Positions 25,857 through 34,269 of a stretch of DNA of 64,000 nucleotides are shown one piece after another. The notes below the pieces were generated by a model. It was not told where the DNA came from. It saw only the letters and a program-made list of their open reading frames with translations, and made no database searches. A program made the position numbers and the translations under genes. Position 1 is the first letter of the stretch, and the number at the start of each line of letters is the position of its first letter. The stretch is from assembly GCA_014055465.1 (NCBI GenBank), contig WIAF01000004.1:124001-188000 (forward strand), in the 5' to 3' direction. Source of the DNA: Nitrospira sp. CR1.1 (lineage in GTDB: Bacteria; Nitrospirota; Nitrospiria; Nitrospirales; Nitrospiraceae).

Positions 25857-26057
25857 ATGCTCGTACAATTGAGTCACCCGCACAGACAAGTCGAGATCAA
25901 AGGACCGAAGCGCACCAAGGAACTGCTGCGCGAGCTCAATCTGGTCATGGAGGCGCATCTGGTCATCCGCGGCGATGAACTCGTCACGGAAGATGAAATG
26001 CTGGCCGACGCCGACCAGGTTGAGATCCGCCCGGTGATCTCCGGCGGAACATTTTGA
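25857..26057 (+). CDS. ThiS/MoaD-like sulfur carrier (TtuB-like) with masked Gly-Gly
   Basis: The 66-residue ubiquitin-fold protein reads MLVQLSHPHRQVEIKGPKRT, then LLRELNLVMEAHLVIRGDEL, and ends IRPVISGGTF. Active sulfur carriers end exactly in Gly-Gly, whose carboxylate is adenylated and turned into a thiocarboxylate. Here two residues (Thr-Phe) follow the diglycine, so it would need trimming, as for QbsE by the JAMM protease QbsD. The ttuA-type thiolase gene starts 58 bp downstream, pointing to a role as sulfur donor in tRNA 2-thiolation. No protease gene is nearby in the window. Confidence 0.82.
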   Translation: MLVQLSHPHRQVEIKGPKRTKELLRELNLVMEAHLVIRGDELVTEDEMLADADQVEIRPVISGGTF

Positions 26058-26115
26058 GTGGCGAGTTTGGTCTGCCACTCAGCACTCACAACTTACCACT
26101 CAACACTGCTCAACC

Positions 26116-27066
26116 ATGAATTGCACCAAATGTCCGACCAGTACACGCGCGGTCATCGGATTGCCGCGGCACAATGCCGCCTTCTGCAAGGCCTGCTTTA
26201 CGACCTTTGTCCATGAACAGGTCGCGCGCGCCGTGAAGGCCTTCAAGATGTTCACGCCCGAAGACCGGATTCTCGTCGCAGTCTCCGGCGGCAAAGACAG
26301 TCTGGCCCTGTGGCATATCCTGCTCGCGCTCGGGTATCGCGCCGACGCGCTGTATGTGAATCTCGGCATCGGCGCCTATTCGGAAGAGTCACACCGGAAA
26401 GTGCGGCACTATGCCGAGACGGTGGCCGCTTCTCATGGCGCGAAACTGCTGGTGCACGTCGTCGAACAGGAAGCCGGAGCCGGCATTCGTGAACTGGCCA
26501 CCATCCTTCATCGTCCGACCTGCTCCACCTGCGGAACGATCAAACGCTATCAATTTAACCGCGCGGCAGTTGAGCAGGACTATGACGTCATGGCCACCGG
26601 CCATAACCTCGACGACGAAGCGGCGCGCCTGTTGGGCAATGTCTTGCACTGGCAGGACGACTATCTGGATAAGCAGAGCCCGACGCTGCCGGCATCGGTG
26701 CAAGGATTTGCGAAGAAGGTCAAACCCCTCTGCCGATTGTCCGAACGGGAAATCGCCGCCTATGCCGTGGTCAATCGCATCGACTACATCGTCGAAGAAT
26801 GCCCCATGGCCAAGGGCTCCAAGATGATTCTCTACAAGGAAGTGCTCAACCGGCTGGAGACCGAATCCCCGGGCACCAAGCAGCGTTTTTACTGGGGGTT
26901 TCTAGACAAACAATCCACCGCCACACCCGCCACGGAGTCCATGGCCGAGAAGGATCAACGCACCCTCATTCCATGCGAGTCTTGCGGACAGCCGACGACC
27001 GCCGGCACCTGCTCCTACTGCAAGATGATGGCGAAGGCCAAAACCGCCGCACCGCCGCGCGCCTGA
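26116..27066 (+). CDS. ttuA: TtuA/Ncs6-type tRNA 2-thiouridine synthetase
   Basis: The 316-residue protein is an N-type ATP pyrophosphatase. It has an N-terminal zinc finger (Cys3, Cys6, Cys24, Cys27), the PP-loop SGGKDS (57-62), a CSTC pair in RPTCSTCGTIKRYQFNRAA and a third Cys in VEECPMAKGSK, which match the three 4Fe-4S ligands of TtuA. The C-terminal zinc finger is CESCGQPTTAGTCSYC. The family adenylates uridine in tRNA and adds sulfur (TtuA at U54 in thermophiles, Ncs6/CTU1 at U34). The preceding ThiS-like gene is the likely sulfur carrier. Confidence 0.9.
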   Translation: MNCTKCPTSTRAVIGLPRHNAAFCKACFTTFVHEQVARAVKAFKMFTPEDRILVAVSGGKDSLALWHILLALGYRADALYVNLGIGAYSEESHRKVRHYAETVAASHGAKLLVHVVEQEAGAGIRELATILHRPTCSTCGTIKRYQFNRAAVEQDYDVMATGHNLDDEAARLLGNVLHWQDDYLDKQSPTLPASVQGFAKKVKPLCRLSEREIAAYAVVNRIDYIVEECPMAKGSKMILYKEVLNRLETESPGTKQRFYWGFLDKQSTATPATESMAEKDQRTLIPCESCGQPTTAGTCSYCKMMAKAKTAAPPRA

Positions 27067-27111
27067 CGCGAACGTTTCCGACGGCCCGCTGTCTCGCCGC
27101 CGCAGACCTAA

Positions 27112-27209
27112 CAGGCTGCGGAAAAACTCATTTTTTGCACGCTACGCCGCGATCAGCTCACGTGGCGTGTTGGTATCAGGATAGTACGCAGGATGCGCAA
27201 CAAGGCCTC
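27112..27209. repeat. Palindromic element, copy C (truncated)
   Basis: It starts CAGGCTGCGGAAAAACTCAT. For about 90 bp it is almost identical to the left part of copy E (33490), including TGGTATCAGGATAGTACGCAGGATGCGCAA. After AACAAGGCC the match to the core decays, so the right half is lost or rearranged. It lies 45 bp after the ttuA stop. Confidence 0.85.
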
Positions 27210-33150: not shown

Positions 33151-34269
33151 GCGACACCAGTCACTTTCTAGCGGCGCGGAACAAATGGCACGAGAGATCT
33201 CAGCCCGCAGCGAACGGTGCGACCGCAAGACATACCCTAACTTGAACGCTTGACACCCAGCTCCCCCCTTTACACTTGGCCAGACTGCGTAGAGACACCA
33301 CAATGAACAATGCAACGACCGGCTGATTCTGGTCGACCGCACTGAGTCGATGCTTCAACCAGCACGCACAGGGAGCTGATCTAGTGATGAGTAACCCAGA
33401 CGCGTGCTTACTCGACAGTCTCCAGAAAATACCCAGGAGGTCGCCGATCTGTCGTCAACAAAGAATCATGGTGTGGTGTATTGTCTTAGCAGGCTGCGGA
33501 AAAACTCATTTTTTGCACGCTGCGCCGCGATCAGGTCACGTGGCGTGTTGGTATCAGGATAGTACGCAGGATGCGCAAAAAGGCCATCCAGCAAGGCCGC
33601 AGCGAGTGAAGCGGCGAATCGTACTCTTGTCGTACGTTGAGCCGCTGAACGAGGCGAGAACGCCGCTGGTGGACTTTTTCCGCATCCTGTTAGACCTGTC
33701 CGCAAGCATGGACATCCTGGGCAACGTTCATCGTAACTGGACGGACACAGCAGGAAGACAGTTCCTTGTCAGTCATGCGACGAATCTCTTCTCCAGCACC
33801 ATCCCTGTCCGAACAGGACCCAATCCTGTCCTGCTCACGCAGTCCATCACATCATTTTATTCTGAAGGCCCGCAGGATCATCCTGGATCTGTACCAGTTC
33901 GTCTACATTCCAAGCCGGCTCGGAACCGGCCACCGACCTCTTCCTAGCGATCATCCTTTGGGAACTCGCATGGTCTCGCCGACGACAGTAACGCCGAACC
34001 GCACGCAAGAGACGGTAGGCTTCACACGCCCGCCTGTCCTGGCACAGGGGATAGCCGGCCAAGACGCATTGCGCTCCGTCGTGTCGCCTCGCCCTAATCT
34101 CCGGCCCTTGACTACGCGAAGGACTTTCTTATCTCGTGAGGAGAAAGAACGGCGGCAAAGAGGAAAAACCATCAGTTCACTTGCAATGCGCCGGGAGACT
34201 CCGTAAGCTCCGGAAAGGATTACACTCCTTGCCTGCGCGCCGCACAAGATTTTCTACGGACAGATCCTG
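33151..34269. other. Gene-free stretch holding palindromic element E
   Basis: There are 1119 bases without a convincing gene. Frames across 33384-33947 and 33766-34206 lack ribosome-binding sites, and the first is partly a translation of element E (33490-33689). The rest contains short repeats of TCCTG type but no recognised promoter or RNA gene. Confidence 0.6.
33490..33689. repeat. Palindromic element, copy E (long form)
   Basis: The full 200-bp form starts CAGGCTGCGGAAAAACTC (33490) and ends TTTTTCCGCATCCTG (33689), so its outer ends are also inverted repeats. The inner core 33567-33689 has CAGGATGCGCAAAAAGGCC and GGACTTTTTCCGCATCCTG as ends, GCAAGGCCGCAGCGAG and GAGAACGCCGCTGG as inner arms, and GTACTCTTGTCGTAC as centre. 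The core reverse complement aligns along its whole length with copy F. Confidence 0.9.

What the first reader, a model, noticed from the sequence alone, without database searches (positions are those of the whole stretch)
25857..27066. TtuA-type thiolase paired with a sulfur carrier whose Gly-Gly is masked
The carrier ends GGTF instead of GG. Thiocarboxylation needs a free terminal glycine, so a protease must remove Thr-Phe, as JAMM-type QbsD does for QbsE. This adds a possible maturation checkpoint to tRNA thiolation in a bacterium.
Basis: partly seen in the sequence, partly recalled or inferred. Interest (0 to 1): 0.7.

Follow-up and report, generated by a model that had tools for sequence, protein, structure and literature searches.

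The report
Sulfur-carrier precursors masked beyond Gly-Gly
A small protein that hands sulfur to a tRNA-modifying enzyme is made in this Nitrospira bacterium with extra residues hiding its working end, and across the phylum what follows that end is unconstrained, even becoming the partner enzyme itself, which implies that a trimming protease must first uncover it.

Summary
A TtuB-type carrier at 25857-26057 ends ...VISGG-Thr-Phe-stop, 58 nt upstream of a TtuA-type tRNA thiolase. The genome is a Nitrospira close to N. defluvii, with one standalone JAMM peptidase and two MoeB-type E1 enzymes. Thr-Phe itself is not conserved. In 128 Nitrospirota genomes SGG is invariant, but 66 carriers continue past it: 1-38 unrelated residues, or in three species the whole of TtuA in frame (...ISGG-MKC...). 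In the window's genus, DNA identity falls from 86% before the Gly-Gly codons to 34% after. Most tails next to ttuA end exactly in an ATGA/GTGA overlap with its start. Carriers not next to ttuA mostly end at Gly-Gly (28 of 32 in the family). Four of the five carriers in this genome are masked. So carriers seem to be made as precursors, and an enzyme indifferent to what follows Gly-Gly, most likely JAMM, exposes the terminal glycine. That fits Thermus thermophilus, where deleting the JAMM gene disturbs TtuB conjugates and halves thiouridine. Cleavage was not shown here, and one complete JAMM-less genome also has masked carriers. A dedicated checkpoint is not supported; tolerance plus translational coupling fits better.

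The parts
25857..26057 (+). TtuB-type ubiquitin-like sulfur carrier, 66 aa, ends ...VISGG-TF-stop
   Evidence: (beta-grasp model, pLDDT 89.5, residues 63-66 disordered)
26043..26048 (+). codons of the invariant Gly63-Gly64, the predicted mature C-terminus
   Evidence: S62 G63 G64 invariant
26049..26054 (+). masking dipeptide Thr-Phe, not conserved
26058..26115 (+). 58-nt spacer between the carrier stop and ttuA; the stop does not overlap the ttuA start here, unlike in many relatives
26116..27066 (+). TtuA-type tRNA 2-thiolase: N-terminal zinc finger, PP-loop SGGKDS, CSTC and EECP cysteines of the Fe-S site, Lys after CxxC, C-terminal zinc finger

Best explanation
The gene pair is a TtuB/TtuA sulfur relay for tRNA 2-thiouridine, probably 5-methyl-2-thiouridine at position 54. 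TtuB is made as a precursor with residues after its Gly-Gly. A zinc protease of the JAMM kind, most likely the standalone JAMM of this genome (contig C19, next to the CysO-type carrier and a MoeB), cuts after Gly-Gly whatever follows. A MoeB-type E1 then adenylates the freed glycine, sulfur is added as a thiocarboxylate, and TtuA passes it to tRNA. Because cutting does not depend on the residues after Gly-Gly, the stop codon is free to drift. In many relatives it has moved into the start codon of ttuA (ATGA overlap, translational coupling), and in three species it is gone, giving a TtuB-TtuA fusion. Shown here: gene content, invariant SGG, unconstrained tails, overlap geometry, fusions, intact JAMM catalytic motifs. 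Inferred: the cut itself, the enzyme that makes it, the coupling, the tRNA position, and thiocarboxylation.
For: SGG is invariant while what follows varies in 128 genomes (62 end at Gly-Gly, 63 have 1-38 extra residues, 3 are fused). DNA identity in the window's genus drops from 0.86 to 0.34 at that point. The fusions have both domains intact: G290, G156 and G252, with an AlphaFold model of the G290 protein at pLDDT 89. G107 and G156 are in one genus; one has tail FL with an ATGA overlap, the other is fused. A JAMM homologue is found in 65 of the 66 masked or fused genomes (my count over the two lists), with E...HxHx7Sx2D intact in all 31 checked. The exception, G235, is a 230-contig draft whose relatives G070 and G036 share its tail and have JAMM. 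The carrier's sequence relatives in the PDB include SAMP2 of 5lda, and the own JAMM weakly matches JAMM1 of the same entry. Literature: deletion of the T. thermophilus JAMM gives aberrant TtuB conjugates and about half the thiouridine (PMC3980101). D. radiodurans JAMM cuts the natural MoaD-MoaE fusion to leave a terminal Gly, and P. furiosus JAMM1 is described as recognising SAMP2 regardless of the attached partner (PMC8832034). The TtuB C-terminus binds the TtuA Fe-S cluster (PMC7138817). TrmFO and MnmA are both present, which fits position 54 for TtuA and 34 for MnmA.
Against: No cleavage data. The own JAMM lies in a CysO/cysteine-type cluster, so it may serve CysO mainly. Outside TtuB, masked carriers also occur in genomes without a clear JAMM: G122 (100% complete; ThiS tail of 12 aa and a CysO-type tail of 4), G254, G215, and G118 where the expected JAMM side is cut by the contig end. 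In that comparison 21 of 30 carriers in JAMM-positive genomes are masked or fused, against 7 of 24 in JAMM-negative ones (p = 0.006, not corrected for relatedness). Many relatives with JAMM still end exactly at Gly-Gly.
Confidence: 0.7

Rival explanations
1. Tails are trimmed by another protease or carboxypeptidase, and JAMM acts only on CysO and other conjugates.
For: Masked ThiS and CysO-type carriers occur in G122, complete and without a detectable JAMM. The tail residues 63-66 are disordered in the model, so open to exopeptidases.
Against: Removing a whole TtuA from a fusion needs an endoprotease with Gly-Gly specificity, and JAMM is the known class for this fold. JAMM is present in 65 of 66 masked TtuB genomes.
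Confidence: 0.15
2. A regulated checkpoint: the Thr-Phe mask is kept so that processing controls tRNA thiolation.
For: Processing is needed in principle, and JAMM loss lowers thiouridine in T. thermophilus (PMC3980101).
Against: Tails are random and are absent in 6 of 15 genomes of the same genus. Other carriers show the same pattern, and gene overlap explains most tails.
Confidence: 0.08
3. The tail stays on and the carrier no longer carries sulfur; it is only a structural partner of TtuA or a protein modifier.
For: No activity has been measured; in some lineages the two proteins are fused.
Against: SGG is invariant while the tail is not, which makes no sense if Gly-Gly is buried inside the chain for good. 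The Fe-S site cysteines of TtuA are invariant.
Confidence: 0.07

Closest known systems
TtuA/TtuB of Thermus thermophilus (s2T54 pathway), with its JAMM homologue
   Same: Carrier and thiolase are the closest solved relatives by sequence and fold; Fe-S cysteines and the Lys after CxxC are conserved; a JAMM affects the pathway.
   Different: TtuB there ends at Gly-Gly in the solved entry. Here and in about half of the Nitrospirota examined it is made with extra residues, or fused to TtuA.
QbsE/QbsD and similar JAMM-processed carriers (from general knowledge; papers not held)
   Same: Carrier with residues after Gly-Gly that a JAMM must remove.
   Different: Different pathway. Here the tail is random and often set by overlap with the next gene, and the JAMM gene is not adjacent.
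MoaD-MoaE fusion cut by DR0402 JAMM (PMC8832034); ThiS-ThiG and MoaD-MoaE fusions (PMC1779556)
   Same: Carrier fused in line to its partner enzyme; MoaD-MoaE is cut to leave a terminal Gly.
   Different: Here the partner is the tRNA thiolase TtuA, in three Nitrospirota species; no report was found in the papers held.
Pro-SUMO and ubiquitin-ribosomal protein fusions (general knowledge)
   Same: Ubiquitin-like precursor with a tail or partner after Gly-Gly, cut by a protease indifferent to the tail.
   Different: Eukaryotic protein modifiers; a sulfur carrier in a bacterium here.

Membership tests
TtuB (sulfur carrier) | Ubiquitin-like beta-grasp fold closest to TtuB | tested here: met
   Foldseek best hit 5ztb_E, E 1.6e-6, TM 0.88; phmmer best 5ztb
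TtuB (sulfur carrier) | Gly-Gly at the C-terminus of the gene product | tested here: not met
   GG followed by TF. Met only after assumed processing; 62 of 128 relatives end at GG
TtuB (sulfur carrier) | Thiocarboxylate formed on the terminal Gly | not testable with these tools
   needs protein chemistry
TtuA (tRNA 2-thiouridine synthetase) | PP-loop SGGKDS, two zinc fingers, three Fe-S cysteines | tested here: met
   invariant across 22 sequences; PDB hits 5gha, 5b4e; Pfam TtuA_LIM_N
TtuA (tRNA 2-thiouridine synthetase) | Over the curated NCBIfam cut-off of the TtuA model | tested here: not met
   265 bits against a cut-off of 450; best model all the same, so a diverged bacterial branch
TtuA (tRNA 2-thiouridine synthetase) | 2-thiolation at tRNA position 54 | not testable with these tools
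   only indirect: TrmFO and MnmA present
JAMM-processed carrier (QbsE/QbsD type) | JAMM with catalytic residues in the genome | tested here: met
   C19:9422-9955, FECCGLLAG and HSHPKDPARPSHTD
JAMM-processed carrier (QbsE/QbsD type) | JAMM gene next to the carrier | tested here: not met
   JAMM is on contig C19 in a CysO cluster, the carrier on C4
JAMM-processed carrier (QbsE/QbsD type) | Tail removed by the JAMM | not testable with these tools
   inferred only

The most novel reading that the evidence does not exclude
In Nitrospirota the sulfur carriers as a class (TtuB, CysO-type, ThiS-like, ThiS, MoaD) are made as precursors. One Gly-Gly-specific JAMM matures them all, which has freed their stop codons to merge with the start of the next gene and, in the extreme, to vanish into carrier-enzyme polyproteins such as TtuB-TtuA. 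This would be a bacterial counterpart of pro-SUMO and ubiquitin-fusion processing.
Probability: 0.45. Interest if true: 0.65.

Novelty: new variant of a known kind. Interest (0 to 1): 0.5.

Why it matters
Sulfur carriers are usually recognised by a terminal Gly-Gly. Here about half of the TtuB genes examined, and four of five carriers in one Nitrospira genome, do not end there. If processing is confirmed, JAMM becomes an upstream maturation enzyme for tRNA thiolation and possibly for molybdenum-cofactor and thiamine synthesis, not only a deconjugating enzyme. The natural tails and TtuB-TtuA fusions give a ready set of substrates with which to test whether a bacterial JAMM cuts after Gly-Gly regardless of sequence.

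Tried and rejected
A conserved TF or GGxF motif was rejected: no relative shares it. The idea that long in-frame tails are selected to stay open was not supported: in the frame that closes at the ttuA start, openness of spacers of 15 nt or more is what base composition predicts (18 seen, 17.2 expected). Open frames occur only when they close in the ATGA overlap, however (18 of 27 against 0 of 17). G263 looked like a fusion without Gly-Gly but contains a run of N and was dropped. Wobble-U34 as the TtuA target is less likely because MnmA is present. A test of JAMM presence against tails inside TtuB-bearing genomes was not possible, since nearly all have JAMM; JAMM-poor Nitrospirota were used with other carriers instead, with a partial association. 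A first pass at those tails read minus-strand loci in the wrong orientation and was redone. Searches for QbsE papers and for Nitrospira with TtuA in the held library found nothing relevant.

Full report
What is there. The carrier is a TtuB: its closest solved relatives by sequence and by predicted fold are the TtuB chains of 5ztb and 5gha. The thiolase is TtuA-like, with PP-loop, two zinc fingers, Fe-S cysteines and the Lys after CxxC, though below the strict NCBIfam cut-off. The genome is a Nitrospira close to N. defluvii, whose own TtuA is 94% identical. It also has MnmA and TrmFO, so position 54 is the likely target; that is inference.

The machinery. The genome has one clear standalone JAMM with catalytic residues, two MoeB-type E1 enzymes near it, and a cluster of ThiS-like carrier, CysM, MoeB, ThrC, CysO-type carrier, NIL-domain-like protein, MoeB and JAMM (CysM, ThrC and NIL are named from the sequence, not from a family search). 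A frame with both E1 and JAMM domains also lies on contig C10.

The tail. Carriers were collected from 128 Nitrospirota genomes. SGG never changes. After it, 62 stop at once, 10 have one residue, 28 have two or three, 21 have four to fifteen, 4 have 16 to 38, and 3 run straight into TtuA. In the window's own genus, 9 of 15 have a tail (A, V, SV, TF, ARANSEL), and the DNA after the Gly-Gly codons is little more alike than chance would give (0.34 against 0.86 before). Thr-Phe is therefore one random member of a drifting set.

Where tails come from. When ttuA follows directly, 62 of 95 carriers have a tail or fusion; when it does not, 4 of 33 do (p = 1e-7; within the family 32 of 42 against 4 of 32; not corrected for relatedness). 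Forty-one of the 59 unfused tails next to ttuA end in an ATGA or GTGA overlap with its start. For spacers of 15 nt or more the carrier frame stays open only when it can close in that overlap (18 of 27 against 0 of 17). In G107 the stop overlaps the ttuA start with tail FL; in G156, same genus, the frame is fused. The Gly-Gly codons (GGnGGn) also resemble a ribosome-binding site, and in one family (f20) most lie 5-8 nt before the ttuA start, so coupling is a plausible gain; that is inference. The window's own pair is not overlapped (67 nt from Gly-Gly to ATG).

Other carriers. In the window's genome MoaD ends GG-SDGW, ThiS GGG-AK, the ThiS-like carrier GGG-R (its stop overlapping cysM), and the CysO-type carrier exactly GG. 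In relatives the CysO-type carrier has tails such as SSCRI, S, CHD, K, SR, SF or longer, and in G271 its frame runs into the next gene. In G107 and G156 ThiS runs on into an enzyme-length frame that looks like ThiG, and in G006 and G048 MoaD runs on into one that looks like MoaE (named from the residues, no family search made). As a control, JAMM-poor Nitrospirota have 7 masked of 24 carriers against 21 of 30 in JAMM-bearing ones. G122 is a clear exception, G118 an unresolved one.

Mechanism. A tail should not stay on a working carrier: in T. thermophilus the TtuB C-terminus itself binds the TtuA Fe-S cluster (PMC7138817). JAMM proteases cut ubiquitin-like carriers after Gly with little regard for the partner, cut MoaD-MoaE (PMC8832034), and affect TtuB conjugates and thiouridine in T. 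thermophilus (PMC3980101). The best account is precursor processing by JAMM, at 0.7.

Verdict. The real finding is wider: carrier termini in this phylum are free to drift, overlap and fuse, which is what a Gly-Gly-specific maturation protease would allow.

Noticed in passing
G290, G156, G252 (L153:1432-2544 +, L152:1439-2566 +, L151:652-1737 -): TtuB-TtuA in-frame fusions with ...VISGG-MKC... at the joint.
   Followed up: yes
L011:4443-9955 (own genome C19): Cluster of two carriers, CysM, ThrC, NIL-like protein, two MoeB and JAMM; the ThiS-like carrier ends GGGR with a GTGA overlap with cysM.
   Followed up: partly
L014 (own genome C10:48000-55000): A 785-aa frame holding both an E1 (ThiF) and a JAMM domain, possibly a bacterial ubiquitin-like conjugation or defence system.
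   Followed up: no
window 27109-27207 and 33487-33585; L011:10197-10296: A dispersed repeat of about 100 bp outside the annotated genes, 96-97% identical between copies.
   Followed up: partly
G122 (L305, L321): Masked ThiS and CysO-type carriers in a complete genome with no detectable JAMM.
   Followed up: partly
G271 (L302): The CysO-type carrier frame runs on into the following gene (ORF 179 aa).
   Followed up: no
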